Program-made: the position numbers and the translations under genes | Source of the DNA: an uncultured Bacteroides sp. | GTDB lineage: Bacteria; Bacteroidota; Bacteroidia; Bacteroidales; Bacteroidaceae | DNA length: 49,346 bases | Direction: 5' to 3' | Assembly: GCA_945965395.1 (NCBI GenBank) | Contig: CAMFND010000126.1 | Location: forward strand, 1 to 49,346 | Part shown: one piece after another, positions 25,141-43,340 of the stretch | How positions within the stretch are numbered: position 1 is the stretch's first letter | How the letters are laid out: each line of letters begins with the position of its first letter | The notes under the pieces: generated by a model | Told to the model about the DNA's origin: nothing | Database searches by the model: none | Seen by the model: only the letters and a program-made list of their open reading frames with translations

Positions 25141-25710
25141 TCATTGCTTACCGATGTCATCCGGATTGGAAATTTCAACAGAAGTTAGTTCACTACTTGT
25201 TTTGTAATTCCCAATCAAATCACCCCGAAAAACTTTCTCAGCTTCCAGCCTCTTACCCTTTTCTATCTTGTGTATGAGAAGAATATCGTTTGGAAGAAGA
25301 CTGCTATTCGAAGCTTGGATGACTTCCAATGTCTTTTCTTCATGAAACATGATTACCTTGAATCTGACCACACGATCCATGTACTTGACGCATATTTCCG
25401 TATTTACATCCAAGGACTTTACATACACTGCCATATCTTGAAATCCCAATATACTATCTACAGAACGAGCCAGTAGATAAGCATCCCATGTAGAGTAACC
25501 TAAGTACAATGCAATGGTATTGAGCGTATAGGAATTTGTGCGATGGTCATCATTAATATACCCCAACAATCTTTTTAGCGTGGTTATGCCGATAGAACGT
25601 TGTGTAACCTCCAATATCAGTTTTGCCAACACTTCAAAATCTTTAGCCTGATCAAAAAGAAGACCGGATTTTGATTTAATATCGTCAATGACTATGTTGC
25701 TCAGTATCAT
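25141..25710 (-). CDS. Defence-locus protein with HTH-like N-terminus
   Basis: 189 residues. Residues 36-80 (RSIGITTLKRLLGYINDD, then YTLNTIALYLGYSTWDAY) resemble the compact helical DNA-binding-like module found at the start of many Bacteroidetes regulators. The remainder is strand-rich (ICVKYMDRVVRFKVIMFHEE, ILLIHKIEKGKR), possibly a sensor domain. Its start overlaps the PP2C stop by one base, so translation is coupled, and it is the last gene of the operon. I infer an operon regulator or an effector whose state is set by the kinase and phosphatase. No named family is recognised. Confidence 0.65.
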   Translation of the reverse strand: MILSNIVIDDIKSKSGLLFDQAKDFEVLAKLILEVTQRSIGITTLKRLLGYINDDHRTNSYTLNTIALYLGYSTWDAYLLARSVDSILGFQDMAVYVKSLDVNTEICVKYMDRVVRFKVIMFHEEKTLEVIQASNSSLLPNDILLIHKIEKGKRLEAEKVFRGDLIGNYKTSSELTSVEISNPDDIGKQ

Positions 25711-26399
25711 TATAATTCCACTTTTATGAATGAATAATTATCATCCATGTCAGAAGCCATGTCATTCAAACACTTCAGATTGGTATTGTCACTTGACGCC
25801 ATATATTCCTCTACGGGAAGCTGTTTATGAAAACCATCTGAACACAATAAGAATACATCGTTCTTCTGGGCAGATACCACTTTAATAGGAATTTCATCTT
25901 TAAGTTCATCACCCATGACGGCGCGAGTTACTATTGCTCCATATTTCTCATAAATCGAGGGCGTTATATTCACTTTAGCAGACAGCTGCTGCACGATGGA
26001 ATGATCTGTTGTACAGGTCATCATCTCGCCATCACTGTATTTATATACTCTACTATCACCCAACCAAGCAATATATGCCTGGCTATTGAGTATCAAAAGG
26101 ACAGCAATAACAGTTCCCATCTTTTTTCCACCCAATTCCATTCGTTTAACCATAAGGGCATCGTTGGCAAAAGCGATTGACTCCCTTATTAAATCTTCCG
26201 GAGAGTAATTTGTCATATTTTTCTCTATAAAACTCACAATTTTTGTAGCCACGGTCTGAGCGGCTATCTCACCATGTGAGTAGCCACCCATACCATCAGC
26301 TAAAACAAATATTGCAGAGTCAGCAGACAGTGACCGATGGATTATATAATCCTGATTCACTGTTCTGCTTCCTTTATTTGAATATTCTGTTATGTTCAT
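25710..26399 (-). CDS. PP2C-family serine/threonine phosphatase
   Basis: 229 residues covering a complete PPM/PP2C domain. Metal and catalytic motifs are in order: NQDY at about residue 15, LADGMGGYSHGE at about 33-44, MGTVIAVLL, WLGDSRVYKY, TTDHS, VTRAVMGD, LLCSDGFHK, and a final DDNYSFIKVEL. All expected aspartates are present, so an active manganese- or magnesium-dependent phosphatase is likely. It overlaps the large ATPase gene by four bases (ATGA) and the last gene by one. The obvious partner is the kinase-domain protein at the top of the operon: the phosphatase could hold the system off by reversing its phosphorylation. Confidence 0.93.
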   Translation of the reverse strand: MNITEYSNKGSRTVNQDYIIHRSLSADSAIFVLADGMGGYSHGEIAAQTVATKIVSFIEKNMTNYSPEDLIRESIAFANDALMVKRMELGGKKMGTVIAVLLILNSQAYIAWLGDSRVYKYSDGEMMTCTTDHSIVQQLSAKVNITPSIYEKYGAIVTRAVMGDELKDEIPIKVVSAQKNDVFLLCSDGFHKQLPVEEYMASSDNTNLKCLNDMASDMDDNYSFIKVEL

Positions 26400-29300
26400 T
26401 CTTTTACAGCTTGTATCGTATCACCACCATGTTTTGTTACACGTGGACGAATACTGATTTTTATAGGACGCTGGGTTATTGCCTTATCAGTAGCTTTGTT
26501 TGCCCACAGATATGCTTCACCAGAACCCAATGCAGCCATTTCTGTGGCTGTTAAGGTCTGCAGCGGAGTTATCGCTTTCTGAACATGCTTAACCCAGGCT
26601 GGTGAACTGAATCGGTGCATCACAACCATGGAACTTAGTTCTATAATTTCCGTAGGTAAGCTCATCGGATCCTGGCTTGCAATCATGATGGAAACGCCCT
26701 TATGACGCATCTCTCGGATTGCGGTCGTAATAGAATCCACCAGTTCCTTGTTGTTCATGTATTTATGCGCTTCATCAAAGACGATGAACTTATTGAAAGC
26801 CTTTCCGTCCACCGTCATCACACTTGAGAAGATATTAAGCATGACAACAAACAGACCAAGAGCTTCCTCTTTTTCAATAAACTCGTCACGCAAATCGACT
26901 ATAATCAATCTTCCCGGACGGAGATATTGCTGCAGCTTACAGCCGTCAGAAATATACTCCTCTGCAAAATCCAATTTTGTATTGGCTAATGCCCTCTGAG
27001 AAGTAGAAAGGTGGTCGCTGCTTGCAACACCTTGGCGAATATTTGCCAACGACATATTGTAGCGACATGCTTTCATGATCTGTTTGAGTTCTTTGATATA
27101 AGCAGAGTCATTGCCTAAAGCAGCCAAAAGGAACAACCAGTCTCGTACAGCCAGCTCAGAAGAATCAAAACCGATGGCATGTACCTCCAAGTCCGGATAT
27201 TGAGCCTTGCGTAATTCCACTTGTGCTTCGGGGGCAAGGAGGATAACGTCCTTGACAGAGTGGGCTTCAGCACCATATTCAGCCTTTAACTTAGCCAACT
27301 GACCAGCTTCATCATTAGGATATACCATCGACGTGAACTCGGGAGCATAATCCATGCTTTCGCTGTAGTGGAAAATAACCCCGGCCATAGGAGCTGGCAG
27401 TTTGTTTACCTTAGAATACTGCTTCAGAACCATTTCTGTGACAGAACCGATGGTGTAACTCTTACCAGCACCCTGTACGCCAAACAAGCTGATTGTATTA
27501 CACTCGTTCAAGTCCATACCAATCACGCGCCCATTCGAAACCATTTTTCCTAATACACCGAATTGGGGAGAATCACTGTTTTTCCCAACGATGACATCTA
27601 CCAGAGGTTCCTGATAATTCGGATCGGTTTCAGGCTGGTGAACCGGTACATCTACAGGGTCTGCCGGTAATGGATGATCATCTCCAGTACCATTTTCTTC
27701 AGTGCCTGCATTGGCCTCAGGAACTTTGGGTTCGGTATGTACGGAATCAACCGCAGGAACTTGTCCTTCCGATTCAGGACAGGTTTCTACAGTTGCTGTT
27801 TGTGAATTGTCTGACTCTTCTTCCGGATGGTCAAAGATTACAGAATGATTTTCTGTTTTCACCTTAGCTGAATTTTCAGTCTTCGACACAACAGGATCGG
27901 CTTCCGGTTCCTTCGGAACAATCACTTCATAATCCGTGTCAATATGCGTTGATACTTCAACGGGCTGAACAGGTTTTGGCTGAGCTTCCATACCTGTTGT
28001 AGTTACACTGAATGTCGGCTCAAAGAAATTGACAAAGTCATTGTCTTGAGCTTCCAGAATTTGAGTCTTCAAGTCACTACTTTCATCGAGAATCTGCTCA
28101 ATGACCGGATTACCCATCGTGTAGATTAGCGTATCACCATAGAAATCCTTCTTTTGGCGTTCAGTTTGCATGAAATCAAAGATTACGCCAAGCCGTTTGA
28201 AACGGACGGAATAACCATCAGAGAGTTTGCTCAAAAATACTTTGTATTCATGAGCCTTATCCGGATTAAGTTGACCATATCGTAACGAGCGATTGATGTA
28301 AAATTCCAGGAGCGACTTTAATTCCAGCACTTTCAGTTCACGGTCAAGTCGGTCATGTCCATCCACCGCAATTTCAAAATGGGAGCGAAGTGCCAGGATG
28401 GTATTTTCAATCTGGTTGACAATCTTCATGTGCAGTTCATCAGCCTGATAATAGGCATTTCTGCATTTTATCTCAACCACATTAAATAAGATTTCCTTGC
28501 GCTTAACATCAATCTTGACAACAAGATTATCTGCCCGTTCTTGGTTTTCGCTATCCAAATCAACGAATAACTCTTTATGCAGATCAATCGGAATCATGAT
28601 TGATTCTGTCGTGATACCCTTCTTTTCCAGGAAGCGTTTGGTCAAGGTGGTACCTATTACTTCGAATCCTTTCCGGGATGTTGTATTAACTTGCATAATC
28701 AACGAGCTGCTCACGGAACGGACATCCTCCAGAATTTGCTTGAAGTTCTCCTTGTCTTCAATATCAATTCCATACTGTTTGAAAAGCGGAACCATCAAGG
28801 ACGCAATTTCGCTGGTAGGTTTCGTGGTCAGATAAGAAGATATACCTGTCGCTTCATCATTCGGGACATAATCTAACAGATACGGGACATCGGAATCACC
28901 GCAGGGAAGATCATAGAATTCAGGTCCCATATTCTTGTCGAACGTAATCACCCAATCGCTGCTGTCATGAATGAACGACAGCAACATCATATCACTCTCC
29001 TTCAAACGGAGTGTTGTTGCCGGTACAGATTCTTCAATGGTAGAAGAAAGCATTTTACCAATCACTTCCTGTAAACGGGCAAACAAGCTAACTTCCAAAT
29101 TCGCCGATTCTGATACTGGGTTCGGCAAGCTCTTGTTGGAATAATAGCGATTCCAAACGAATGTTTTACCAATCGGCTTCGCTTCTACTATATCCCTGCA
29201 AATGGTACCATTCAAGAAGAAAGAGCGGCTCAGCTCACTTGGGCGAGAGGGCTCTGTACTTACAATAAACGGATTTACCAGGAAAGACAGATGAGCTTGA

Positions 29301-31954
29301 TAGTCATCATGCTTGTTGATAAAGTCACTTGTCTTATTTAAAGAAAAGCGAAGCTTGGGGAACAAGCGGTTAGCAGAAGCTTGTGAAAATACTTCCGCAT
29401 CGTTGGCAACAGCCGATTCCGGGTCAAGCAAATCCTTGAAAGATTCGCCAGACTGCAACATGTTTTCATCAGTAAACAGTCTGATTTCATAGGTCAGTTC
29501 ATGCCCGATTCCAATCTTTTCCAAGCGTACCAATGCTTCTGCAAATGTAGCAGCATCTCCTGCGTTAAATAAATTGATTACCAATTTGTCCGTATAGGGA
29601 TGAGATACGCTGTAGTTGAACAGATGGCGTACCACTAGGTCCAGATTCACATCACTATCAATGCGCTTTTCCCTTGCCACATTCAACAGCATGGAAACGT
29701 AGGATTTCAACTGACGATTGCCTGAAGAAAAAGCCTCTTCCGACTGGGTCGGTTGTGCATAAGCTCCCCAGCCAAATGTCAGTTCACCGATGTACTGATA
29801 GGCTTCCTTCAGCGGGTCATCACTCAATACGATAGGCGCTACATTCATAGGTATTTGACCCTGGAAAAGCTTGTCCAATTTCCGATACCATGCTTTTCTA
29901 TACTTTGGATTCTCAATGGTACGCTCTTCCCAGTCTTGATACAGTTCATAGAGATTTACAATCCAAGCCAGTCGCAACGGGTGCAAGGGACTAATCATCT
30001 TAATCTTGGTCTTACTGCCATCAGGCATTTCTACCGACAATAGAACTGTATCAATATTTTGAAGTTTGACGACAGCTTCCGTGCTCAGGTCTTTCTCCAA
30101 TTCTTCTCTGAGCCAAGCATCATACTCAGACAGATAAGCTTTAATCAAGCCCAAATTGCTGGTGAAATCCAAAGTGCTGGTCAAACCGGTTTCGTCTTCT
30201 GCTGACTCTCTGATGATAGCAAAGAGGTCTTCTCTCAATGCTCCCAATTCGTTTGGAATATGAATATCAGACACAGGAACGAACAACGGTTCACGAACGG
30301 CAGTATCATTCGGATTCATCAAATACGCATCTGTAGGATTACCGCCGAGCAAAGCCTCGATGTAACCAAAATCATTCGCATTTTTCAAGAAGGTGGATTC
30401 GAGTTGGATCAACTTCTTTGACATTTGAATTTGGTAAGCATAAGCCGCTCCAAAATCAAAATGATAGGTGTTGTTGAGATTACCATCGACCCACCGATTG
30501 CGATCAACGCCATCAGTTGGAATCTCCAAGTCTTCATTTTTAGCCAAATGAGCCGAGCGATAGAGTATGATGGCCTGTGTGTAGCTGTTGACTTTGGCAC
30601 GTTTGTCAATCTGACCTTCGGGCACTTCTCCATCGTTCACAATGGTAAATACAGCAGATTCGTTACAGTAAGCAACATGGTGTTCCAAGCGATACTGTTC
30701 CATCTGAAGGTTGGGATTCTCTTTCTTGGCTTCTTCCCAAGCTGCCTGTACCTGGTCTTCCTTGAACATTTTCTTTTGCTCAAGCACAATGCCATTCTCA
30801 TCTAAAGCTCGCACACGAAGCAGATAGTCACCTTCGTCAAACATGCCGTCTGCAATGTTCACTGACATCTTGCGTGTAGCACGTTTGTTGGTTCCTACCT
30901 TGGCTTTTTTGATTACACCCACCTCTGAAAAGTCGTCGATGTCAACCAACGCAATTTCGAAAGAAACAATGGCAGGGTTATCTTTAGGCGCAGGGTCGGT
31001 TGTAATGGTGAAGGAAACTTTTGATTTCTTCTCCGACAAGATGTTCAGGACAAAATTCCCTTCTTCATCCTTGACCAATTCTTTCTTGGAATCCTTACCT
31101 GTATTCAAGTCCACCATGACCTTTACAGGTCCGGAAGAACCTATTTCAAGCCAAGGCATCTTCGCATAATTAAATTCCGGATGTTTGCAAAGAATACACT
31201 CAAACAGCGAGTTGGCATCGTTCAAAGAATCATCAGAAGTCAAGAAGGTCATGAGCGCACGCTGAATGGTTCCTCTTTCAATCGGAAGAGAAGCTATACG
31301 GTCAGCTGCAGTCAAAGAAAAATCAGCAAGAATGGCCGATGCTTTTTCTTTGTTCAGCATAAAACGTCTGCGGACAGCATTCTCTTCTTTGAAAAGTTCA
31401 CTGTCCGGCCACATGCCAAATACGAACAACCCATTTCCCCAAGCCTCACTTGAATACTGGTTCAGTTCAAGATACAGGATATAGGAAATAAGATCACTCA
31501 TGTAGGCATGCACTTCATCCCTTAACAGTTCGAAGATTTGGGACCAGTTCGACCTCTTTTCTTCGGGCATCTCATCCATCAATTTATAGACAAAGGAATC
31601 CTGAAGGTCTGATGCCGACAAGTTTTGGAACGTAGCGTCACCATAGGAGTCTTCAGCCGATGTTCTACTGTTGGTCGGGACCAAAATCAATACCGCTTTG
31701 GACGGGTCATTTCTCAATTCAATGAGTTTCGTTGCATGGATATATTCATCCCCTTTTTCCTCTTCCGAGAGGATGAATACAGACAGATTCTCATTGATAG
31801 GACGCAACAAAGGAAGCAATACACGAAGTTCCTTCAGAGCAAGACCGGTTATCTTCATACAGTGCCCTGGGCGAACCTGCTTCAGCTTTGGTGCATATAC
31901 TTCAACGACGTGTTGAATAAAACGTTCGTAATATAGTGTTCTAATTTCTTCCAT
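26396..31954 (-). CDS. Giant HerA/FtsK-like ATP-binding protein, Mad8-like
   Basis: 1852 residues. The first 1350 or so are a long globular region without a domain I can name. An acidic, proline-rich linker spans about 1355-1475 (VPKEPEADPVVSKTENSA, then HPLPADPVDVPVHQPETD). The C-terminal ATPase has Walker A FGVQGAGKSYT near residue 1490, Walker B FIVFDEAHKYM near 1720, and an arginine- and glutamine-rich segment IMIASQDPMSLPTEI, as in HerA/FtsK/VirB4 translocases acting on DNA. It lies three bases after the previous gene and overlaps the next by four. Size, ATPase type and place after a kinase and a mid-size protein match Mad8 of the MADS system as I remember it. No BREX or DISARM protein fits. 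Confidence 0.8.
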   Translation of the reverse strand: MEEIRTLYYERFIQHVVEVYAPKLKQVRPGHCMKITGLALKELRVLLPLLRPINENLSVFILSEEEKGDEYIHATKLIELRNDPSKAVLILVPTNSRTSAEDSYGDATFQNLSASDLQDSFVYKLMDEMPEEKRSNWSQIFELLRDEVHAYMSDLISYILYLELNQYSSEAWGNGLFVFGMWPDSELFKEENAVRRRFMLNKEKASAILADFSLTAADRIASLPIERGTIQRALMTFLTSDDSLNDANSLFECILCKHPEFNYAKMPWLEIGSSGPVKVMVDLNTGKDSKKELVKDEEGNFVLNILSEKKSKVSFTITTDPAPKDNPAIVSFEIALVDIDDFSEVGVIKKAKVGTNKRATRKMSVNIADGMFDEGDYLLRVRALDENGIVLEQKKMFKEDQVQAAWEEAKKENPNLQMEQYRLEHHVAYCNESAVFTIVNDGEVPEGQIDKRAKVNSYTQAIILYRSAHLAKNEDLEIPTDGVDRNRWVDGNLNNTYHFDFGAAYAYQIQMSKKLIQLESTFLKNANDFGYIEALLGGNPTDAYLMNPNDTAVREPLFVPVSDIHIPNELGALREDLFAIIRESAEDETGLTSTLDFTSNLGLIKAYLSEYDAWLREELEKDLSTEAVVKLQNIDTVLLSVEMPDGSKTKIKMISPLHPLRLAWIVNLYELYQDWEERTIENPKYRKAWYRKLDKLFQGQIPMNVAPIVLSDDPLKEAYQYIGELTFGWGAYAQPTQSEEAFSSGNRQLKSYVSMLLNVAREKRIDSDVNLDLVVRHLFNYSVSHPYTDKLVINLFNAGDAATFAEALVRLEKIGIGHELTYEIRLFTDENMLQSGESFKDLLDPESAVANDAEVFSQASANRLFPKLRFSLNKTSDFINKHDDYQAHLSFLVNPFIVSTEPSRPSELSRSFFLNGTICRDIVEAKPIGKTFVWNRYYSNKSLPNPVSESANLEVSLFARLQEVIGKMLSSTIEESVPATTLRLKESDMMLLSFIHDSSDWVITFDKNMGPEFYDLPCGDSDVPYLLDYVPNDEATGISSYLTTKPTSEIASLMVPLFKQYGIDIEDKENFKQILEDVRSVSSSLIMQVNTTSRKGFEVIGTTLTKRFLEKKGITTESIMIPIDLHKELFVDLDSENQERADNLVVKIDVKRKEILFNVVEIKCRNAYYQADELHMKIVNQIENTILALRSHFEIAVDGHDRLDRELKVLELKSLLEFYINRSLRYGQLNPDKAHEYKVFLSKLSDGYSVRFKRLGVIFDFMQTERQKKDFYGDTLIYTMGNPVIEQILDESSDLKTQILEAQDNDFVNFFEPTFSVTTTGMEAQPKPVQPVEVSTHIDTDYEVIVPKEPEADPVVSKTENSAKVKTENHSVIFDHPEEESDNSQTATVETCPESEGQVPAVDSVHTEPKVPEANAGTEENGTGDDHPLPADPVDVPVHQPETDPNYQEPLVDVIVGKNSDSPQFGVLGKMVSNGRVIGMDLNECNTISLFGVQGAGKSYTIGSVTEMVLKQYSKVNKLPAPMAGVIFHYSESMDYAPEFTSMVYPNDEAGQLAKLKAEYGAEAHSVKDVILLAPEAQVELRKAQYPDLEVHAIGFDSSELAVRDWLFLLAALGNDSAYIKELKQIMKACRYNMSLANIRQGVASSDHLSTSQRALANTKLDFAEEYISDGCKLQQYLRPGRLIIVDLRDEFIEKEEALGLFVVMLNIFSSVMTVDGKAFNKFIVFDEAHKYMNNKELVDSITTAIREMRHKGVSIMIASQDPMSLPTEIIELSSMVVMHRFSSPAWVKHVQKAITPLQTLTATEMAALGSGEAYLWANKATDKAITQRPIKISIRPRVTKHGGDTIQAVKE

Positions 31955-31957
31955 TGT

Positions 31958-33518: not shown

Positions 33519-36500
33519 TTACACGTTAAGAGGTTCAATGACTATGTGCTTTTGACTGTCTAAACGTATTGCAGTAAACTTGCGATTGTTCTTTGTCACA
33601 AGTATTTCTGAATAGGTTTTTGCCTCCAGCAAATTCTTAAATATCTGCAGCTCAATGAAGCGTCCGCGCAAATCGTTTACAGAAGGACTGAATCCAGCAT
33701 GGATGTACTTGAGCATTTCATATAGGTCGAGACTCACCGTAAGTTGGATAAACTTATCCTCTTTATGACGGAAAATCAAGCTGTCGCTTTCATACTCAAT
33801 GTACTTCGTCAAGTGTTCGGTCTTATTCACATAGAGCTCGAATTCATCCAAAGAGAAACGGCGGTAACTCTTTGAAATCGGATCAGCTACGTTTGAACTG
33901 GCTAACAGAAGATACCCTTTGGTCAGCAACTCATTTGAGCAGCCTTCACTTGCTGAAATGGCACTTGCTAGGTCCTGCATGGTTTGCGCCAACTCCTTCG
34001 GGTCCTCCAGACGCAACTGCTTTTCAAAAGCACTGGCATATCTGTATGGCAGTCTTTTTTTGAAGTCTATGGCACCTTCAAAATACTGATGACGAACAAA
34101 CGATTTATGCCGGTTGGTAACCGCCATGCGTACATCGTCCGATTTCACCTCATAAGAGGGGATAATCATGTTATGATCATTGAAGTCCTTCAACAAGGAA
34201 TGCTTGCGGTCGCTAAATATGATGTAGTCATTGGGACGTTTGATACGATAATACAGATCACGGTCGAAGGCAGGAAGTGCCACACCAGCCACGTCTGTCT
34301 CACGAAGCAACTTCACCAGTCGGTCATTGGAATCCAATGTCGGCAAGTTGAAATATTCCACCTTGTTGGCATCGGGATAGACAACCGGAGCAGTGAGATT
34401 GAAGTAATAGTATTGCCAGTAATATTCTGGAATGTTATTGGCATTGACCAATTCAATCAGCGTCTTGACTTCATCACAAGAATAGTCACGAGTCAGCATC
34501 CAGGCTATCATCGAACGCAAATCACGCATGGTGATATGCAGTTCCCGCTTATATACAATGGTACGAACCAACCATTCCAGTCGGTTGATGACTTCATCGC
34601 CTGCACTGGTGTCCTGGAATGTATCTACGTTATACTTGATAAAACAGCGGTCGGCAACCGGACAGTTCTGGCATTTGCTCCACAATTCAGGACGAGTCAG
34701 CTTCTTCATTTGCTGAGCCAACAAACTTGGAGTTTTCGATTCCACATCCCGTGCTGTCACTGACCGCAGATTCAGGTTGATGACCATCAATCCCGGGAGC
34801 AATTCAGCATGTCCTTCCTTGTAGAAATACTCCTCGATATTATCCTGCAATATCCGCAGTTCGGGGTGCATGGACAAGAAATCCACCAGACGTCCCTCAT
34901 TGATGGCTATCACACGACCTTCCTTGGCTTGCGTGTAATCGTTCAATCCACAGAAGGGAGAAAGAAACTCACTCAGTACCTCATCGTTCGCCTTGTTGTC
35001 TTCATCCTGTGAGCCGTCGTAGTTCGATTCAAATCGAATGCCCGAGATGTAGAATTGCGAACCGTTGTTGGTATCAAACTGCAGCTTGTCCTGTCCCTTA
35101 TCTTCAATCCGGTGTATAAATGCCGTTTTACCATCACCTGCATTACCGGTGATGATAATCAACTTGTATTTCAAGGCTTCGATATCAGCTATCAACTCTC
35201 TATCCAACCGTGTCTCAGAATAGGTCAGCGCATCAAAGGCATGTTGGGCGACACCAGCTCTTGTACCGCCATTGCCGTGACGACTTTGGCTATACAGCGA
35301 GTTGATGTAATCCACAGGATTACCCATTTCTTTACCCTGATGAATGATTGAAATCATCGTCGAATCCTTCTGCATAGCATCCAGTCCGATAGCTTCCAGG
35401 GTATCCAGCATTTCTTGGGCTGTCTTGAACCGCTTGTTCTTGTCTGTACGGATAGACTTCATGATGAAGTCTGCCATCGCATCAGACAACTTATCATTAT
35501 AGTTACGGATATCTGTAGGTTGCTTATGGATATTAGGACGCAGGTTACCTCCAGGCCACGGATAGGCATGTGCCAGAAGTTCATATAGGGTGATACCCAA
35601 CGCAAATGTATCTGCGGAGCAATCCCAGTCAATTCTGTTTCCAGAGAGGATTAGGTCTGGAGCCATGTAGGGGAAAGTGCCGCCAAATGATTTATCCTCA
35701 GTGGTAGCCGAGATATTGAAGTCTATCAGCTTGTACTGCTGACGCTTGTGCCACATGATGTTGCTTGGCTTAATATCACGGTGGAAAACTGGCGGTTCCT
35801 TGCTCTGCATATAGGTCAGCGCTTTCAGAATTTGCGTAGCCATCTTGAAGATTTCATCGGCGGGAAGTCGCAAGTCGCCCTTGGTGTATTCGTGCAAATT
35901 CTCTCCCTCCAGCAACTCCATCAACGTAAAGAACAAGCCACCGGGAACTGTCCGGTCATTATGCTTGAACTCTACAATATTGGGATGATGCAGTTCTTTC
36001 AGCGCATTAAATTCATTGATGGCGTTATCAATCGAGGCATCCTTTTCGAATATCTTGATGGCAAGATATTGTTTCTGCATATCGTGCCACACCTTGAATA
36101 CCCTTCCAAAACCACCTTTACCCAGAATTTCGTGAAGCGTCATACTGGGAGAAACCTTCATACCGGGTTTCATATCCTTGAGGTATAAAGTCTTCTCCTT
36201 CTTTGTAGTTACGACCGTATGGGTCGTGGCTATCGTTTTATGTACTTCTTCATCAAAAGCCCGGTTCAGGAAGTCAAGCACTTCGTCGGCTGTTTGCCAG
36301 CGTTTATTGACATCAGCCACAATCGTCTTCTGAACAAACTCATCCATCCATGCAGGCAGTTCCTTCAGTACATGACTGGGCAGATGGTCTGCCGGCAGTT
36401 CACCCCCTAAGGCAGCCATGAAGGTAACCACACTGTCAAAAGGCAATTTGCCAACCATGAGCTGGTAAAAAATCACCCCCAAAGAATAAATATCGCTGGC

Positions 36501-37658
36501 AGAGGAAACGTCACCGTCCAACAGCTCTGGCGCTGTGTAGGGTGAAGACTGATTGCCCGTGGCATTAACCGAGAAGCTCAGGTCGATGTGCTCCACAAAC
36601 CACGACATTCTGAAGTTTGCCAATGCAGCTCTACCCCCTTCGTAAACATAGATGTTCTCAGGGCATACATCGCGGTGATATACCTGCACCTTATGTGCCA
36701 CTTTCAGCGCGTTCGCCACATCCATGATGATGCTCAGCTTATCCGTCTGTTTGAATGTCTTCTGATTGAGCTTGGCCCGCAATGAACTTTCATCCTGGTA
36801 GCGACTGATTTCATAGTAGTAGGTCTGCTCTTCATTCATCTGGCACTTTGTGTTGACAATGTATGGAGAATCCCCAATCTTCTCTTGTGCCATGTAAGCA
36901 TTTTGTACCGAATAGGTGAGCTGCTGCAGTTCCTTCGGACTTTTGTCAGCCACATCCAGCGGATATTCACGAACCCGATAACGAGCCGTAGCAATAAACT
37001 GAGGAATACAAAGGTATTCGGTAAATTCTTCCGTTTCCTGAAGCTTTTCCTCTATGCGATAATTGAATATCGTGGTACGTTCAGCTCGTTTCCGCTCTAC
37101 CGATTCCCCCGTGAGAAAATCCGTCAGCTGATTCATCAAAGGCTGGATGCCATTGGCAGAACGAGAAACCAGTTCGTGATTGGAGATAAATTCAGCCAAT
37201 GATTCCCCTAATGTAAAGGTCTGCTTGTAGGTGTCGCACGTAGGATCCAAACCAAACTTAGATTGTTGGGGATGGCTGAGCGTTACCAACGTAATGATTT
37301 GACCAAAATTCCAATCTGGATGCTGGTTCTTGATTTTAGATGCAAGAATACGGCTCTTTAACCCAGCCGTCTTATGCGGGTTAGCCACTTCCTGACCATT
37401 GCGGAACCAAGCATAGTCGTCTCCTTCCAGATTGCCAGCCCAATCCTTGTTTTCAATATGGTAGAGGGCATGAGGAGTCACCACCAAACAGTCATACTCC
37501 CAATATTTCATGATGCGGTTCGGTCCCGTAATCGCTATGTTACAATTGGGAATAATGTAAAAATTGTCAGGCAACTTCACCGACAGAAAATCCAGCAAAC
37601 GCTGTTCTCCGGCATTTACTGGTCCATCGTCATGAGGAGGTCTTTTAATGATTGCCAT
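33519..37658 (-). CDS. NERD - pseudokinase - kinase - P-loop ATPase fusion, Mad6-like
   Basis: 1379 residues from ATG 37658 (a TTG extension to 37685 is less likely). Residues 12-130: NERD nuclease-related domain with Asp56 and Glu69-x-Lys71 (YDCLVV ... IENK). Residues about 215-480: first kinase lobe pair with HRD (YHRDVCPEN, about 325) but NFR instead of DFG, and no Gly-rich loop, so a pseudokinase. About 508-770: second kinase with LGKGGFGRVF, AIKIF, HRDIKPSN (about 622) and DFN. About 836: Walker A GNAGDGKT, then a CxxC-x5-C zinc motif (CQNCPVADRC) in the ATPase part. It could combine sensing, phosphorylation and DNA cutting in one polypeptide. The PP2C gene downstream supplies the reverse reaction. 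Matches Mad6-type kinases by position. Confidence 0.88.
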   Translation of the reverse strand: MAIIKRPPHDDGPVNAGEQRLLDFLSVKLPDNFYIIPNCNIAITGPNRIMKYWEYDCLVVTPHALYHIENKDWAGNLEGDDYAWFRNGQEVANPHKTAGLKSRILASKIKNQHPDWNFGQIITLVTLSHPQQSKFGLDPTCDTYKQTFTLGESLAEFISNHELVSRSANGIQPLMNQLTDFLTGESVERKRAERTTIFNYRIEEKLQETEEFTEYLCIPQFIATARYRVREYPLDVADKSPKELQQLTYSVQNAYMAQEKIGDSPYIVNTKCQMNEEQTYYYEISRYQDESSLRAKLNQKTFKQTDKLSIIMDVANALKVAHKVQVYHRDVCPENIYVYEGGRAALANFRMSWFVEHIDLSFSVNATGNQSSPYTAPELLDGDVSSASDIYSLGVIFYQLMVGKLPFDSVVTFMAALGGELPADHLPSHVLKELPAWMDEFVQKTIVADVNKRWQTADEVLDFLNRAFDEEVHKTIATTHTVVTTKKEKTLYLKDMKPGMKVSPSMTLHEILGKGGFGRVFKVWHDMQKQYLAIKIFEKDASIDNAINEFNALKELHHPNIVEFKHNDRTVPGGLFFTLMELLEGENLHEYTKGDLRLPADEIFKMATQILKALTYMQSKEPPVFHRDIKPSNIMWHKRQQYKLIDFNISATTEDKSFGGTFPYMAPDLILSGNRIDWDCSADTFALGITLYELLAHAYPWPGGNLRPNIHKQPTDIRNYNDKLSDAMADFIMKSIRTDKNKRFKTAQEMLDTLEAIGLDAMQKDSTMISIIHQGKEMGNPVDYINSLYSQSRHGNGGTRAGVAQHAFDALTYSETRLDRELIADIEALKYKLIIITGNAGDGKTAFIHRIEDKGQDKLQFDTNNGSQFYISGIRFESNYDGSQDEDNKANDEVLSEFLSPFCGLNDYTQAKEGRVIAINEGRLVDFLSMHPELRILQDNIEEYFYKEGHAELLPGLMVINLNLRSVTARDVESKTPSLLAQQMKKLTRPELWSKCQNCPVADRCFIKYNVDTFQDTSAGDEVINRLEWLVRTIVYKRELHITMRDLRSMIAWMLTRDYSCDEVKTLIELVNANNIPEYYWQYYYFNLTAPVVYPDANKVEYFNLPTLDSNDRLVKLLRETDVAGVALPAFDRDLYYRIKRPNDYIIFSDRKHSLLKDFNDHNMIIPSYEVKSDDVRMAVTNRHKSFVRHQYFEGAIDFKKRLPYRYASAFEKQLRLEDPKELAQTMQDLASAISASEGCSNELLTKGYLLLASSNVADPISKSYRRFSLDEFELYVNKTEHLTKYIEYESDSLIFRHKEDKFIQLTVSLDLYEMLKYIHAGFSPSVNDLRGRFIELQIFKNLLEAKTYSEILVTKNNRKFTAIRLDSQKHIVIEPLNV

Positions 37659-38120
37659 AATATTTCGTTTTTTAATTGTTGTCAAGTATATCTTTCAGTC
37701 TGTCAATGATACGTTCGGCTCTCAGCGGAATTTCTTTCTGCAAGAGATAAAAAAACTCCCAGTTTTACAATCCAGCAAATGACCAGCAAATAGAATCAGC
37801 TTGATAAGGTACTGATTCTGAATGCTAATCATCATAGTGAGCACGTTTCAGCAAATGACCGGCAAATAGAATTTGCCATGTAACTGAAACGGCTATGGTG
37901 TCCTAATGCTTCGTGGTTATAGCCGAATTATAACCGAAGCTTGCTTGTATTTGCTTAGCTGAATGCGCTTTACAAAGACGAGCTAACATTATAACCGAAT
38001 TTATCTCAGCAATTTATCTCAGCAAATGACCAGCAAATAGAATCTGTACCATAAGCTACTGATAATCGAGCTGTATTTAGTCCAATCACACTAGTCAGCA
38101 AATGACCAGCAAATAGAAAT
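37659..38120. repeat. Repeat-rich spacer before the kinase operon
   Basis: Four near-identical 23-bp elements at 37773, 37849, 38020 and 38096. Each contains CAGCAAAT (or CGGCAAAT) twice, 11 bases apart, and ends in AGAA. Spacings are 76, 171 and 76. The 53-base intervals after copies 1 and 3 resemble each other (both contain ATAAG-N-TACTGAT), so this is a degenerate 76-bp tandem repeat with an insertion in the middle that itself contains a duplicated TTTATCTCAGCAA. The last copy ends three bases before the AlbA_2 stop codon. No gene is seen. Iteron-like regulator binding is a possibility. Confidence 0.7.
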
Positions 38121-39569
38121 TTATCCCCATATAGGAATGTATTTCATATAGCGTTGGCCAGTTTCAGAGTCAATCGGTTTAATCAATTTCTTTTCCAAGG
38201 CTTCTTTAATAAGTCTTGAAATGCTTGCAGAAGAAGTTGGTTTCAGCCCAAATCGTTCTCTGAGAGAACTATTTGTAATACCATCGCCTTCTATATACTT
38301 TAAGCAAGCATGCATATATGTTGACCAGAGTCTGTCATCCATCTGCATACTGGTAAAATCTAAGTGTGAGAACAACGTTACTTTTGTGTCATCTTGATAG
38401 ATTTGTATGCGAGGAGCCGGAATCTGTTTTAATTCGCAACTAATAACCATTCTATCCCAGCCACGCCCCAATTCTTCGCACATGCCTAAGCGTCTCATCA
38501 GGGATGCCAGCTTTTCATTGCGCGATTTCGGAGGATTATCAATGATACGCATCACATCCACTAAAGGTGTACCGGGATTTGTAACCTCTACACGATTGTC
38601 AAAGAGTTCAATGACTACACCAGCTCCTGTAATATAAAGGTCTTGGTGAATGCAAGCATTTGCAATGGCCTCTCTAATTGCAGGAAGCGGGAACGTACTT
38701 GTTGAGCTTCGTTGAATTTCATTAATATTTTCTTTAGAGGGAAGTAGCATATTTACTACTTTCACTGCTTTTTCAAAAGAAATAGCATAGCCCTCATCAA
38801 GCGTTTCTTCCTTTAGAATGGCCAATCTGTTCAGCTTGTCATATTGTACTACTCTGATAGCTTTCCGTCCTAAACGAGAAAAGGACGAAAGTTTCTTTGC
38901 AAAAAGAATAGCTCCTAAATTCGTGATGGCATAAAGGCCATCGTCTTGTTTGACCAAAAGGTCTTCTTCGAGCAGATAGTGAGCACATTCTTCAAGCGAA
39001 TCAGGCATCGGAATGCGCATGATGGTGAAATACGCTTCATAGTTCAGCAGCCGCATAGCTTCTTGCAGTTTCAAGCCCGTTTTAGTAAAAGTTTCTTCAA
39101 ACTGCTGATGACGTAATTTATCCCAAAGCTGGGTTTGCAACACAGGAAATTCAATTATCTTTTTGGTGTAGCTACCCGAACGGATATAATCTACTTTCTG
39201 GAAGGTGACAGGTGTACCTTCTGCTTTTGTTATTACAATCAGTTCAACATGCGCTCCATCAATATCGACATCATGAAACTCAAAGTTAGCATTCTTGGAG
39301 AGTAAGTAGCGCAACCAATTCTCAAGTTCCTGATTACCTTTCTTCTCGCTCTTTAATCGTACGGTTGTGCCAATGATATCGTGTGTACTATCATCTACGC
39401 CCCATATCATGTAGGCATTATTTCTATCGGCAAGCACAGCACTATTGGCAAGGGCACTAATGTCCTCGCCAATCATTTCTGGTGACCAATTGTTGTGCTT
39501 AAACTCCACCCATCCAGATTCATTGGGTTGCTTGCACAGTTCTTTAACAAGTATATCTAAATTTTCCAT
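38121..39569 (-). CDS. AlbA_2 / HATPase_c_4 protein with C-terminal winged helix
   Basis: 482 residues. N-terminal Schlafen-type AlbA_2 domain (WVEFKHNNWSPEMIGEDISA at about 19-38, YMIWGVDD, YIRSGSYTKKI). GHKL-type ATPase region near 290-330 (AIREAIANACIHQDLYITGA, then EVTNPG). C-terminal helix-turn-helix (TNSSLRERFGLKPTSSASISRLIKEAL). Such proteins were formerly called RecG-like regulators and commonly accompany type I restriction-type loci. It begins seven bases after the S-subunit stop, so it belongs to the methylase operon. It is an insertion relative to the MADS order as I know it, or an alternative Mad3/Mad4 component. Confidence 0.85.
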   Translation of the reverse strand: MENLDILVKELCKQPNESGWVEFKHNNWSPEMIGEDISALANSAVLADRNNAYMIWGVDDSTHDIIGTTVRLKSEKKGNQELENWLRYLLSKNANFEFHDVDIDGAHVELIVITKAEGTPVTFQKVDYIRSGSYTKKIIEFPVLQTQLWDKLRHQQFEETFTKTGLKLQEAMRLLNYEAYFTIMRIPMPDSLEECAHYLLEEDLLVKQDDGLYAITNLGAILFAKKLSSFSRLGRKAIRVVQYDKLNRLAILKEETLDEGYAISFEKAVKVVNMLLPSKENINEIQRSSTSTFPLPAIREAIANACIHQDLYITGAGVVIELFDNRVEVTNPGTPLVDVMRIIDNPPKSRNEKLASLMRRLGMCEELGRGWDRMVISCELKQIPAPRIQIYQDDTKVTLFSHLDFTSMQMDDRLWSTYMHACLKYIEGDGITNSSLRERFGLKPTSSASISRLIKEALEKKLIKPIDSETGQRYMKYIPIWG

Positions 39570-39576
39570 TGCTATT

Positions 39577-40926
39577 CTACTTAGTCCAACTTTCGATTTC
39601 TTGCTCTATCATCGAGATGGCTTTACGTTCGTTCTCAATAGCCTTTCCTACTTTTTTACTATATTCTAACACGAGTTTATGTATGTTATCTATGATAGAG
39701 TCTTCGATGATAGGAATGGGAATTAACTTTAAATGATGGGGCTCTATATGTTGTATTACAGATCCAAATATATGTTTCTGAATAAGAGCCTTACCTATAG
39801 AAGACGAAAGGAACGCATAGATATACCCACCTCTGAGGATGTCATTCGGTTGTAGCCGAATGACATCCTCAGAAACAAGCTTCTGAGCATGTCCGGCATG
39901 CGCCCAAGCGACATTTCCAATTGTACCCGATCTTGGTATCAAAATGGTGTTTTCTTTTATGGCTAAGCTAGTAATGTTTGTAGTTTTGGTTTTTGATAGT
40001 TGTTTTTTACTATCAGGACTAGCAAGAAAGATGTCTGCACCTCCTAGAAAAACGATGCCATTTTGCACATAATATCTTTTAAATATATCAGGCCGTGAGA
40101 TATCTTCACAAACTTGACCCAATGGCTTCCATTTAAAGTTTTTGTAGATATATTTTTCAATATCGTGACCTTCTGATATATAATAATTTGCTTCGAATCT
40201 TCTATTGTGAGAGGAGAGAATAGTGCGTGAAGAAACACATCCAACATTTTTCTTTGATGGATAAGGAATGATATCTTCAACTTGCTGTATTGCTTGCTGC
40301 AACGCATCAGCAGCCTCTTCACGCAATCTTGCCGACTCCTGTATTAAATCATCAACTTCCTGCTGGAAGGATGCAGGGAAATCTGGTATAGGAAGATTTG
40401 CAACCATTTTATCTGTGATAAAAGGTTGAACACCGCCTGTTGCATGTTTCCAGAAAGATAGGTTGCCATATTTTGATGCCAAATAAGCATAGATAAAACC
40501 ATTTTTGAATTCATCTTTTACAACAATTCGAATGATATTATCAGACCCCATCATCTTATATTTTTCCCAATAATTGGGGACAAAAGCTGTTTGTCCTATG
40601 GCTCCTACACGTCCAGTTAAAATCATTCCACCCTTTAAAACAGAAGATTCATCATATCCATATTTTCGTGACATGTAGTTACAACTCATTAAGGGATTTT
40701 GTGCCATCATATCAGAGTTACTAAGAAATGGCACACCACGTTCTGGGCGGGTATAAACACGACGTCCTCGACCTGTTGTGTATATATTGGAACAGTAAAA
40801 ATTCAAACAATGACTAGAATGATTATGAAGTGTATTATCATAGATGTTAATATCTGCATTATGATAACTTCCATCCATTCTCATTGATTGTCTTACTGTC
40901 TTGATTGAAACTGAGATACTTTTCAT
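39577..40926 (-). CDS. Type I-like DNA specificity subunit (HsdS-like), Mad5-like
   Basis: 449 residues with two target-recognition domains separated by coiled coils. The first TRD covers about 1-185 (ending VANLPIPDFPASFQQEVDD) and its helix EVDDLIQESARLREEAADAL. The second covers about 220-420 (GQVCEDISRPDIFKRYY to HHLKLIPIPIIEDSIIDNI) and is followed by a helix rich in Glu/Lys to the end. The LPIPDFP and LIPIPIIE signatures are typical of HsdS. It should set the methylation site of its partner methyltransferase, recognising a split DNA motif. Its start overlaps the methyltransferase stop by four bases. Confidence 0.9.
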   Translation of the reverse strand: MKSISVSIKTVRQSMRMDGSYHNADINIYDNTLHNHSSHCLNFYCSNIYTTGRGRRVYTRPERGVPFLSNSDMMAQNPLMSCNYMSRKYGYDESSVLKGGMILTGRVGAIGQTAFVPNYWEKYKMMGSDNIIRIVVKDEFKNGFIYAYLASKYGNLSFWKHATGGVQPFITDKMVANLPIPDFPASFQQEVDDLIQESARLREEAADALQQAIQQVEDIIPYPSKKNVGCVSSRTILSSHNRRFEANYYISEGHDIEKYIYKNFKWKPLGQVCEDISRPDIFKRYYVQNGIVFLGGADIFLASPDSKKQLSKTKTTNITSLAIKENTILIPRSGTIGNVAWAHAGHAQKLVSEDVIRLQPNDILRGGYIYAFLSSSIGKALIQKHIFGSVIQHIEPHHLKLIPIPIIEDSIIDNIHKLVLEYSKKVGKAIENERKAISMIEQEIESWTK

Positions 40927-42959
40927 TTCTGTTCCTCCAAGAATTTAGCATAAGCAGCAGCCACTTCCGGCAAATCATCAGCCAAACGCTTTACACGTTC
41001 ACGGCGACTGCGCACAATTTCATGACCATTTTCTGTGTAAGCCAACCATTTCTTTTCGTGGGCAAAGAGAATCTCTGCACCATCTTCATCCTTCTTATAG
41101 ATAGGCACACCGCGTCGGTCTTTACCCACTTGCTCAACAATGGCCATAAACACATCGTAATCCTCTTTGTCGATGGGGATAAGCAATTCTTCGGATGTTT
41201 TCTTTTGGAGGAACAGCAAAGAGGCCTGCACACCAACCTGAGGCAAGAAGGTTTCTACCGGAAGGTCGATGGAGGCCAGCAACTTGAAGTGCTCTAAGAT
41301 CCATTTGCGCACACTTTCCGTGTTTGGATTACCCAAAATGCCATCAGGCAATACAATACCCATTTTGCCACCGGGCTTTAGGAAGTTGTAGCATGCCTCA
41401 ATAAAGAGAACTTCTGGCGCATTACTATCCAGAGCATACCGGCGGGCAATCTCTACATCCACCTGCACCTTGGCGCCAAAGGGAGGGTTTGTAAATATCA
41501 TATCGAACTTACCCTGTGCATTGTCCGATGAAGTATCAAAATGGAAATCCTTATCCTTACTGTGCAGAATACTTTCATTCACAGCTTCTGCAATCAAAGG
41601 ACGGTCGGGCTTGTCACCCTGCGGATAATCCAAAGAGTTGATATTGAAAATATTGCTATGTCCATCACCTGCCATCACCATGTTCATTCGTGCCGCCTTC
41701 TTCAAGTCGGGGTCGAAGTCGAAGCCGAAAATCATGCGCTCGGCATAATGACGCACTCTTTCATCCACTTCGGGTGAATTGACACGAGCGGCCAAGCGCA
41801 CTTCGTCCAGGTCCGGGTAAAGATTGCGTGTGATTTTGCGGCGCACATGGTCGAGTACCATAACCAGGAAACCACCCGAACCACATGCCGGGTCGAGTAC
41901 ACGGGTGTCCTCGTTGGGATCGAGCATTTCCACCATGCACTTAATGATGTTTCGCGGAGTAAAGAACTGGCCGGCTTCCTGCTTCAAGGTGTTGCTCACG
42001 ATGGTTTCATAAGCAGTACCTTTCACATCGACCGTTGCATCCAAAAAAGAATATTTTGCCAATTCTGCAGCAACAAAAGCCAGTCCACGGTCAGAGAGCA
42101 TGATTTGCTCAGAACCATCAAAGACATCGCGGAACATCTGGCTGTCCTTCAGCTCCTCGAAAAGCCCACGGATGCGAGTGGCAACTGCCTTTCGGCCTTC
42201 TTCCGTGAATTGCTCTGTTACGCCCACCCAGAAACGGCGACGATAGCTGATGCCCTCTTTGGCATCGGCATTGCGGCGTTTCTCATCATAAAGCTTACAG
42301 AATATCAGGTTCAGCAGCTCCCAGAAAGCCGTTTTCTTCATGCCTTCATTGCCATAGATGTAGTCATGACAGCGCTTGAATGTCTTGATCAACGATTCGT
42401 TTGCCGGCTTACGGGGCATGGCACGATCACCCTGCGCTTCCAGGTCGGCAAGCGTTTGACCATTAGCCGGGAAATCGGAAATATCTTGTACGTCCGCCTG
42501 TCCAAAGTCATCTTCTGCATAATAGCGGTATAGCAAATCCTCTCCGTTGGTCCAGCATCCAAATTCACAATCCGTAAACGTCAGGATATTGTCGAGCATG
42601 GCTTCTGCGCCTTTCTTCGTATCCGTCGGTTTCACCTTTGCATCTTTGGCAACAACGACAAAGCGAATGAGGTTCTCCACCTCATGTGCCTTACCTTCAT
42701 TGAAGATAGCCAAATCAACACTTTGAGCCCGACTCTTTTCAGAATCAGGATCTTGGTAAGTCACCCTAAAGTCACGCTCCATGTCTTCAGGAGCAAATCC
42801 ATATTCTTCAGCCATCATATCTATCATTGACTGAAGGGTCAGTTCTTTATCTGTCGCTTTCACGACCTTATTAGTCAGCACACAAACCAGTTGGTTATCT
42901 TCCAAAACCAATTCGTCATTTTCCTGTATGCCATCCATCGGGGTTGTTTTATCTGCCAT
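40923..42959 (-). CDS. N6-adenine DNA methyltransferase with HsdR_N-like N-terminus, Mad2-like
   Basis: 678 residues. Motif I DPACGSGGF near residue 355 (S-adenosylmethionine site) and motif IV TNPPFG near 486 (adenine flipping and methyl transfer) define an N6-adenine methyltransferase of HsdM type, and the helical stretch before it matches the HsdM N-terminal bundle. An additional N-terminal region (about 45-150: SVDLAIFNEGKAHE, RFVVVAKDAKVKP) resembles the HsdR_N nuclease-like fold, but the usual E-x-K is AKDAK, so it is probably inactive and only binds DNA or partners. It is followed by a specificity subunit, with no HsdR in the window. Methylation probably marks self DNA. Confidence 0.9.
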   Translation of the reverse strand: MADKTTPMDGIQENDELVLEDNQLVCVLTNKVVKATDKELTLQSMIDMMAEEYGFAPEDMERDFRVTYQDPDSEKSRAQSVDLAIFNEGKAHEVENLIRFVVVAKDAKVKPTDTKKGAEAMLDNILTFTDCEFGCWTNGEDLLYRYYAEDDFGQADVQDISDFPANGQTLADLEAQGDRAMPRKPANESLIKTFKRCHDYIYGNEGMKKTAFWELLNLIFCKLYDEKRRNADAKEGISYRRRFWVGVTEQFTEEGRKAVATRIRGLFEELKDSQMFRDVFDGSEQIMLSDRGLAFVAAELAKYSFLDATVDVKGTAYETIVSNTLKQEAGQFFTPRNIIKCMVEMLDPNEDTRVLDPACGSGGFLVMVLDHVRRKITRNLYPDLDEVRLAARVNSPEVDERVRHYAERMIFGFDFDPDLKKAARMNMVMAGDGHSNIFNINSLDYPQGDKPDRPLIAEAVNESILHSKDKDFHFDTSSDNAQGKFDMIFTNPPFGAKVQVDVEIARRYALDSNAPEVLFIEACYNFLKPGGKMGIVLPDGILGNPNTESVRKWILEHFKLLASIDLPVETFLPQVGVQASLLFLQKKTSEELLIPIDKEDYDVFMAIVEQVGKDRRGVPIYKKDEDGAEILFAHEKKWLAYTENGHEIVRSRRERVKRLADDLPEVAAAYAKFLEEQK

Positions 42960-43028
42960 AATTTACAAAAATACCATCTAAGTTTTACTTAACCATATCC
43001 AAGTTAGTCCATGTTTCAAATCAGCCAT

Positions 43029-43340
43029 TTACTTCTGGGAATTGCTCTTCATTTCACTATTAGCAAGATGAAGGGCACGCCGTGCTACCAGCGTAGATTC
43101 ATCCTTGGTTACATTGATAATCTTATCGGCCGTCCATAAAGACCGCAGTTCTTCCTCTTCCACATGAAGTATGTCCGCTATAGGGACGATATACTCATCT
43201 CGAAAAGGACGAATGCCTCTTTCAATCCTGCTATACATTGGTGCATCCACACCAATGGCGTCAGCAATCTGACGCTGTTGTACATTCAGCTCATCACGGA
43301 GCTGTTTTATTCGTGCGAGTAACATGTTTGAATTTACCAT
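43029..43340 (-). CDS. XRE-family regulator of the defence locus, Mad1-like
   Basis: 103 residues; RDELNVQQRQIADAIGVDAPMYSRIERGIRPF is split between helices two and three of a Cro/CI helix-turn-helix, and LHVEEEELRSLW is the usual C-terminal extension of this group. It lies 69 bases before the methyltransferase start on the same strand, as the first gene of the operon. An inverted repeat ACTTGTC-N7-GACAAGT overlaps its promoter (43383-43403), so autorepression is likely. The role may be to silence the methyltransferase until the element has settled in a new host; that is inference. Confidence 0.82.
   Translation of the reverse strand: MVNSNMLLARIKQLRDELNVQQRQIADAIGVDAPMYSRIERGIRPFRDEYIVPIADILHVEEEELRSLWTADKIINVTKDESTLVARRALHLANSEMKSNSQK

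What the first reader, a model, noticed from the sequence alone, without database searches (positions are those of the whole stretch)
25141..43340. MADS-like defence locus with an added PP2C phosphatase, a C-terminal regulator and an AlbA_2 gene
Seen: nine minus-strand genes, XRE, N6-adenine methyltransferase, HsdS-like subunit, AlbA_2/HATPase protein, NERD-kinase-kinase-ATPase, a 518-residue protein, an 1852-residue HerA-like ATPase, PP2C, and a 189-residue HTH-like protein. Genes in each of the two blocks overlap or lie within a few bases. There is no HsdR. Known: the methylation-associated defence system (MADS) has an HTH protein, methyltransferase, S subunit, kinase, Mad7 and ATPase Mad8, as I recall. 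Inferred: this is a Bacteroidetes variant in which a dedicated phosphatase opposes the kinase, giving a reversible on/off control, and the last gene may be its target or regulator. This variant may be undescribed.
Basis: partly seen in the sequence, partly recalled or inferred. Interest (0 to 1): 0.88.

Follow-up and report, generated by a model that had tools for sequence, protein, structure and literature searches.

The report
Phage-defence operon with built-in phosphatase brake
A Bacteroidota genome carries a DNA-methylation-based phage-defence operon of the MADS kind whose effector genes are distant relatives of a known DNA-nicking, DNA-pumping complex, and which, like most of its sampled relatives in this phylum, has an attached protein phosphatase that probably opposes its own protein kinase.

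Summary
In detail: nine minus-strand genes at 25141-43340. NCBIfam equivalog models for Mad2, Mad5, Mad6, Mad7 and Mad8 are passed above cut-off; no Mad3 or Mad4 match. (1) Mad6 (C-terminal half), Mad7 and Mad8 are homologues of SspF, SspG and SspH, phosphorothioate restriction effectors: profile comparisons match one-to-one at 96.6-97.8% with six cross-pairs at or below 0.5%. Mad8 keeps a PD-(D/E)XK signature in 79 of 79 sequences. A 2026 review lists the MADS restriction step as unknown, so this makes it testable. (2) PP2C is a lineage-wide component: in 56 of 59 assessable Bacteroidota loci and 0 of 14 others, three changes on the Mad7 tree, metal-site residues intact in 57 of 57. In 7 of 28 genomes examined, Mad6 and this PP2C are the only gene matching Pkinase and the only PP2C found. 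The 189-residue gene is patchy (12 of 57). AlbA_2 sits in a variable slot (filled in 12 of 75 loci). Which way phosphorylation switches the system is inferred, not shown.

The parts
43029..43340 (-). XRE-type HTH gene in the Mad1 position
   Evidence: HTH_3 E 4.2e-12; no PADLOC mad1 match at E 0.01
40923..42959 (-). Mad2, N6-adenine DNA methyltransferase (marginal N-terminal HSDR_N_2 match)
   Evidence: NCBIfam MADS2 803 bits, cut-off 720; Pfam
39577..40926 (-). Mad5, HsdS-like specificity subunit
   Evidence: NCBIfam MADS5 408.8 bits, cut-off 400; distance correlation with the other genes 0.11-0.18
38121..39569 (-). AlbA_2/HATPase_c_4 gene, cargo in a variable slot between mad5 and mad6
   Evidence: Pfam; slot filled in 12 of 75 loci by different genes
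33519..37685 (-). Mad6: NERD, degenerate kinase, kinase, SspF/DndF-type P-loop core (conserved ATG start at 37658)
   Evidence: NCBIfam MADS6 705 bits; conservation
37293..37616 (-). NERD nuclease-like domain of Mad6; E27, D65, [ED]78, K80 in 76 of 76
   Evidence: Pfam NERD
36279..36884 (-). first kinase domain of Mad6, degenerate: HRD Asp kept in 54 of 76, DFG Asp replaced by Asn in 61 of 76 (NFR in the window)
   Evidence: PF00069 match
35406..36137 (-). second kinase domain of Mad6; K544, D637, N642, D655 in 76 of 76
33531..35333 (-). SspF/DndF-type P-loop core of Mad6 (extent from the match to L099, residues 785-1385)
   Evidence: hhalign to SspF 97.8%, E 7.4e-13; to L099
31958..33514 (-). 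Mad7, SspG/DndG-type homologue
   Evidence: NCBIfam MADS7 540 bits; hhalign to SspG 96.6%, E 5.8e-10
26396..31954 (-). Mad8, SspH/DndH-type homologue: methyltransferase-like fold, nuclease signature, HerA-like ATPase
   Evidence: NCBIfam MADS8; hhalign to SspH 96.7%, E 3.3e-10 over residues 346-1291; model
28412..28663 (-). PD-(D/E)XK signature of Mad8: E1098, D1142, E1161-x-K1163, Q1181
   Evidence: 79 of 79 Mad8
26408..27517 (-). HerA-like ATPase domain of Mad8
   Evidence: PADLOC mad8 and HerA models, Pfam HerA_C
25710..26399 (-). PP2C phosphatase, component of the Bacteroidota form
   Evidence: Pfam PP2C_2; 56 of 59 Bacteroidota loci, 0 of 14 others; metal-site residues 57 of 57
25141..25710 (-). 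189-residue protein: helical N-terminal half (HTH-like by its order of helices) plus beta-rich C-terminal half, accessory
   Evidence: model pLDDT 86.9, pTM 0.51; in 12 of 57 PP2C loci

Best explanation
This is a MADS-type restriction-modification operon of the Bacteroidota form. Mad2 with Mad5 marks host DNA by adenine methylation (inferred from the families). Mad6-Mad7-Mad8 is an FGH-type effector complex of the kind used by phosphorothioate systems (homology shown here): it would load on unmarked DNA, Mad8's HerA-like motor would move the DNA and its PD-(D/E)XK domain nick or cut it (activity inferred from DndFGH). In MADS the F subunit has an N-terminal NERD-pseudokinase-kinase block. The PP2C is its dedicated antagonist: it removes phosphates from Mad6 itself and/or Mad7/Mad8, and I think most likely acts as the brake that keeps the kinase-driven response silent until infection (direction inferred). 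About half of the sampled Bacteroidota hosts hold no other PP2C of this Pfam family, which would explain why the operon brings its own. The 189-residue protein is an accessory, perhaps a regulator, in some Bacteroidales copies, and AlbA_2 is interchangeable cargo.
Against: No activity was measured. The direction of the switch is not shown: the phage-kinase precedent suggests that phosphate turns FGH off, which would make PP2C an activator. With a single Ssp sequence in place of a profile the G and H matches were weak (Mad7-SspG 67.4%, Mad8-SspH 35.5%; Mad6-SspF 95.7%), and the Mad8-SspH match does not include the ATPase domain. The nuclease fold was not matched in the PDB. PP2C tracks HsdM as closely as Mad6 (0.90 each), so co-inheritance does not single out the kinase. 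MADS outside Bacteroidota keeps the kinase without an adjacent PP2C, and 2 of 12 MADS genomes without a MADS PP2C had no PP2C_2 match at all. Host PP2C scarcity is confounded with phylum (Fisher p 0.04). SpoIIE-type PP2C was not searched. The kinase-less MADS bridge is one locus. Mad3/Mad4 are missing.
Confidence: 0.6

Rival explanations
1. Guardian model: phosphorylation switches the FGH-type effector off, and the PP2C keeps it on, both against its own kinase and against kinases that phages send in.
For: The JSS1_004 phage kinase inhibits DndFGH nicking by phosphorylation in vitro (PMC12345140, abstract and passages). PP2C is co-inherited with the effector. Effectors with an F subunit too short for a kinase exist, so the kinase is not needed for the ON state.
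Against: No PP2C was found in 13 other FGH stretches, eight with a kinase-less F, although they would face the same phage kinases.
Confidence: 0.25
2. Toxin-antitoxin model: the Mad6 kinase/NERD block is a suicide back-up effector and the PP2C is its antitoxin; phage inhibition of PP2C triggers cell arrest, as in KKP.
For: KKP is a kinase-kinase-phosphatase defence module in which a phage protein inhibits the phosphatase and frees toxic kinases (PMC11341870, passages). Mad6 also has a kinase pair and an intact NERD. PMC10853773 (passages of section 20) proposes back-up effectors for such DndF fusions.
Against: KKP kinases are separate short genes; the 14 assessable MADS loci labelled as other bacteria do without an adjacent PP2C, which an antitoxin should not allow unless a host PP2C serves (present in 10 of 12 such genomes).
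Confidence: 0.3
3. The PP2C is a passenger that was once captured downstream of Mad8 and has no part in defence.
For: It evolves faster than the core (dN/dS 0.14-0.29 against 0.01-0.06 for Mad6, Mad7, Mad8 and HsdM where computed), and the tree allows two losses.
Against: Kept in 56 of 59 loci with metal-site residues intact in 57 of 57 and a 1- or 4-nt overlap with Mad8 in 48 of 57.
Confidence: 0.07

Closest known systems
MADS (methylation-associated defence system)
   Same: Mad2, Mad5, Mad6, Mad7, Mad8 equivalog models passed; order M, S, kinase, Mad7, Mad8 as in the plasmid locus L013
   Different: No Mad3/Mad4; PP2C after Mad8; AlbA_2 between Mad5 and Mad6; XRE gene does not match the PADLOC mad1 model
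DndFGH / SspFGH restriction complexes
   Same: Mad6 C-terminal half, Mad7, Mad8 are homologues in the same order; NERD-pseudokinase-kinase fusions of DndF are already described (PMC10853773, passages)
   Different: Paired with methyltransferase and specificity genes, not phosphorothioation genes; PP2C
KKP kinase-kinase-phosphatase module
   Same: Kinase pair opposed by a PP2C in one gene cluster, in defence (PMC11341870, passages)
   Different: Kinases are separate short genes; no DNA modification or FGH effector
TerY-P triad (VWA, PP2C, kinase; name recalled)
   Same: PP2C and kinase together; such a triad lies after Mad8 in L064, one of the three Bacteroidota loci without the MADS PP2C
   Different: Has a TerY-type VWA protein; none among the nine genes here
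Type 2 BREX PglW
   Same: NERD and kinase N-terminal half (PADLOC PglW E 6e-73; NCBIfam 236 bits, cut-off 990)
   Different: No PglZ or BrxC among the nine genes; C-terminal half is SspF/DndF-like
PADLOC candidate PDC-M21
   Same: One of its proteins, PDC-M21C, matches the PP2C weakly (23 bits, E 9.3e-6)
   Different: No other PDC-M21 protein was matched; its composition is not known to me

Membership tests
MADS | Mad2, Mad5, Mad6, Mad7, Mad8 homologues | tested here: met
   Five of five above NCBIfam cut-offs, Mad5 only just
MADS | Mad1 regulator | tested here: inconclusive
   XRE HTH in position but no mad1 model match in PADLOC or NCBIfam
MADS | Mad3 and Mad4 (eight-gene list recalled; AAA_21 gene and a second gene in this position in L013) | tested here: not met
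   No model match in the nine proteins and no gene between M and S; hence filed as a variant, not as the eight-gene type
MADS | Restricts phage | not testable with these tools
   Needs plating assays
DndFGH/SspFGH | F, G, H homologues in order | tested here: met
   hhalign 97.8/96.6/96.7% with cross-pairs at most 0.5%; weaker with single sequences
DndFGH/SspFGH | H subunit with a methyltransferase-like domain (inactive in DndH) | tested here: met
DndFGH/SspFGH | H subunit with a REase domain | tested here: inconclusive
   PD-(D/E)XK residues in 79 of 79, but the fold was not matched
DndFGH/SspFGH | H subunit with a HerA/FtsK ATPase | tested here: met
   HerA models
DndFGH/SspFGH | Partner phosphorothioation genes | tested here: not met
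   None among the nine genes; M and S subunits instead
Type I restriction-modification | HsdR translocase/nuclease | tested here: not met
   No HsdR protein among the nine; only a marginal HSDR_N_2 domain in Mad2
BREX type 2 | PglX, PglZ, BrxC core | tested here: not met
   No match above cut-off among the nine proteins
KKP | PP2C followed by two separate kinase genes | tested here: not met
   Gene order

The most novel reading that the evidence does not exclude
Bacteroidota run a phospho-gated restriction complex: a methylation-guided, DndFGH-type translocating nuclease whose F subunit carries its own kinase and whose activity is set by a co-inherited phosphatase, with phage attack on the phosphatase or kinase as the trigger. 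As far as my searches show, a restriction effector switched by a built-in kinase-phosphatase pair has not been described.
Probability: 0.4. Interest if true: 0.8.

Novelty: new variant of a known kind. Interest (0 to 1): 0.6.

Why it matters
A 2026 review still lists the MADS restriction step as unknown (PMC12904381, passages). Showing that Mad6-7-8 are FGH-type effectors with a conserved nuclease signature in Mad8 turns that into a site-directed-mutant experiment. The lineage-wide PP2C adds a likely reversible control layer, and a natural contrast (Bacteroidota with it, other sampled phyla without) in which to study it.

Tried and rejected
Rejected readings: plain type I R-M (no HsdR); BREX (no PglZ/BrxC among the nine genes); the 189-residue gene as a core part (12 of 57 loci); AlbA_2 as a core part: the slot is filled in 12 of 75 loci, with AlbA_2 in eight (window, L014, L017, L018, L024, L094 by Pfam; L015, L016 by similarity only), YhcG in L019, CpXC in L020.

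Led nowhere or weak: the 189-residue model (pLDDT 86.9, pTM 0.51) had no PDB match at E <= 0.001; the PDB sequence search with Mad7 gave nothing significant, with Mad8 only HerA-type ATPases; the Mad8 core model had no Foldseek match at E <= 0.001, best 1.6e-3, and the 50 rows of VIA-align shown were methyltransferase-type folds mostly over model residues 166-492, so the nuclease rests on motif and order of elements. BpuSI, named in PMC10853773, was not among the rows shown. Kinase-less relatives were sought in 391 and 395 genomes: 2 and 4 matched, the starting genomes included. The Maestri 2024 MADS paper is not held, so what it says about Mad6-8 or a phosphatase is unknown to me. Nine literature searches listed no paper that I recognised as linking MADS with FGH or a PP2C with MADS; several listings were capped (for example 25 of 498), and only passages, abstracts and two sections were read. 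'PP2C' occurs 0 times in the main text of PMC12839542 and PMC10853773; 'MADS' and 'phosphatase' 0 times in the latter.

Limits of the survey: the scan found 154 relatives and kept the best 80 by similarity to a mostly Bacteroidota alignment, so other phyla are under-sampled. Near-identical loci (L026/L027, L029/L030, L050/L051, L011/L071) are counted separately. Bacteroidota labels are mine, from record titles; L060, titled Bacillus, is among the 14 others though its Mad7 lies in the Bacteroidota clade. Dropped before 56/59 and 0/14: 12 loci with Mad8 under 1700 residues or under 900 nt beyond it (4 Bacteroidota-labelled, 8 others), none with a PP2C match. Host counts used 40 of 41 genomes asked (L069 not held), which I chose mainly from named isolates; the nine were picked because one search showed two Pkinase matches. 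Tree: quick method, midpoint root, L064 at an open fork; starred branches force two changes, not three.
Full report
Observation. The nine genes are present as described. Five pass NCBI's equivalog cut-offs for MADS proteins: Mad2 803/720 bits, Mad5 408.8/400, Mad6 705/460, Mad7 540/410, Mad8 214/175; PADLOC models mad2, mad5, mad6, mad7 and mad8 match the same proteins. Pfam finds PP2C_2 in the 229-residue protein and SLFN_AlbA_2 + HATPase_c_4 in the 482-residue one, and a marginal HSDR_N_2 in Mad2. No Mad3 or Mad4 match. The window is a whole contig of a 3.72-Mb, 161-contig assembly with one Mad7 match.

How common. With the Mad7 model, 6 of 395 genomes of the phylum matched, own genome included (1, the own, above cut-off), and 4 of 301 of the family, own included, all four above cut-off. 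A scan of genome contigs with a nine-sequence Mad7 alignment found 154 relatives and kept 80; one more came from viral contigs and four from plasmids.

Gene survey. In 86 loci, the window included, the PP2C was found in 57. Among loci with Mad8 of at least 1700 residues and at least 900 nt beyond it, it is present in 56 of 59 labelled Bacteroidota, 0 of 14 others, and 1 of 1 viral contig; 12 loci could not be judged. The three Bacteroidota exceptions are two Hymenobacter loci (L012, L069) and L064. On the Mad7 tree of 78 rows the label needs three changes (shuffled mean 18.6, 0 of 500 as low; starred branches force two), read most simply as one gain after the Hymenobacter branch and two losses: L064, and L060, a copy in a record titled Bacillus sp. 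that sits inside the Bacteroidota clade. L064 has a VWA/TerY_C gene, a PP2C_2 gene and a kinase gene downstream, and the L060 host has two PP2C_2 matches, so in both another PP2C is at hand. Over 40 loci, PP2C distances follow Mad6, Mad7, Mad8 and HsdM (r 0.90-0.92) while HsdS does not (0.18): the operon travels as a unit apart from its specificity gene. PP2C overlaps Mad8 by 4 nt in 32 and by 1 nt in 16 of 57 loci.

Conserved residues. PP2C D17, D35-G36, D115, D188-G189 and D220 in 57 of 57. The second Mad6 kinase keeps K544, D637, N642 and D655 in 76 of 76; the first is degenerate (HRD Asp in 54 of 76; DFG Asp is Asn in 61 of 76). The Mad6 NERD keeps E27, D65, [ED]78 and K80 in 76 of 76. Mad8 keeps E1098, D1142, E1161-x-K1163 and Q1181 in 79 of 79.

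Kinase and phosphatase. Of 28 genomes with a MADS PP2C, 15 have no other PP2C_2 match and 13 do; of 12 MADS genomes without it, 10 have at least one (Fisher p 0.04, confounded with phylum). Nine of the 28 showed only two Pkinase matches, and in nine of nine both lie in Mad6. In seven of these nine the MADS PP2C is the only PP2C_2 match, and PF00481 adds no other place. So in 7 of 28 genomes no other partner for either enzyme was found; SpoIIE-type PP2C was not searched. No PP2C was found in 13 other FGH stretches, of which L097 is cut inside its H gene and eight (L098, L099, L131, L133-L137) have an F subunit too short for a kinase (lengths). Precedents point both ways on direction: KKP uses a phosphatase as brake on toxic kinases (PMC11341870, passages), and a phage kinase turns DndFGH off by phosphorylation (PMC12345140, abstract and passages). 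I favour the brake but hold the guardian model open.

Accessory genes. The 189-residue gene is in 12 of 57 PP2C loci and in none of the other surveyed loci, adjacent to PP2C in ten of the twelve. Its model has a helical N-terminal and a beta-rich C-terminal half. Relatives, mostly weak, occur in 42 of 121 same-family genomes, own included. Of four such relatives whose surroundings were fetched, three lie directly upstream of a kinase-like gene (Pfam Pkinase checked for L120 only), beside a gene that I recognise by eye as guaA; the three look like one syntenic locus, so this is one hint, not three. The slot between mad5 and mad6 is filled in 12 of 75 loci, with AlbA_2-type genes in eight; the window and its relative L014, 96% identical in Mad7, carry AlbA_2 proteins only 23% identical.

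Verdict. A real MADS-type locus, a new variant of a known kind. The strongest new points are the FGH identity of Mad6-7-8 with a conserved nuclease signature in Mad8, and the PP2C as a lineage-wide component of the Bacteroidota form. The first may be stated in the original MADS paper, which I could not read.

Noticed in passing
window 9011-13003: Two adjacent GmrSD_N genes, the first also with GmrSD_C, in a stretch of low GC (0.30-0.33); a WYL-domain gene lies upstream at 7885-8850.
   Followed up: partly
window 18885-19778: Abi_2-family gene, a further likely defence gene.
   Followed up: no
window 15420-18704 and 44986-47804: DnaG-type primase, ParA-type, PcfJ and PcfK genes: the defence genes sit on what looks like a mobile element.
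   Followed up: partly
window 40923-42959: Marginal HSDR_N_2 match (26.2 bits, cut-off 25) in the N-terminal part of Mad2.
   Followed up: no
L064:17725-21559: VWA/TerY_C, PP2C_2 and kinase genes downstream of a MADS that lacks its own PP2C.
   Followed up: yes
L060: MADS of Bacteroidota type in a record titled Bacillus sp., without PP2C; likely horizontal transfer.
   Followed up: partly
L099:3509-15431: Kinase-less MADS-like locus: short Mad6, Mad7, methyltransferase, specificity subunit, Mad8.
   Followed up: yes
L095, L096, L097: A distinct family with a kinase-bearing F subunit, G and H; L096 has a stand-alone DNA methyltransferase gene beside them.
   Followed up: partly
L120:5006-6856, L121:3536-5455, L122:4982-7016: Relatives of the 189-residue protein directly upstream of kinase-like genes.
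   Followed up: partly
L019, L020 (Pfam); L017, L022, L023 (similar N-termini by eye), between HsdS and Mad6: Other cargo in the AlbA_2 slot: a YhcG nuclease in L019; CpXC-type proteins with large uncharacterised proteins in the others.
   Followed up: no
L094: A MADS with PP2C and the 189-residue gene on a 42,999-base contig classed as viral.
   Followed up: no
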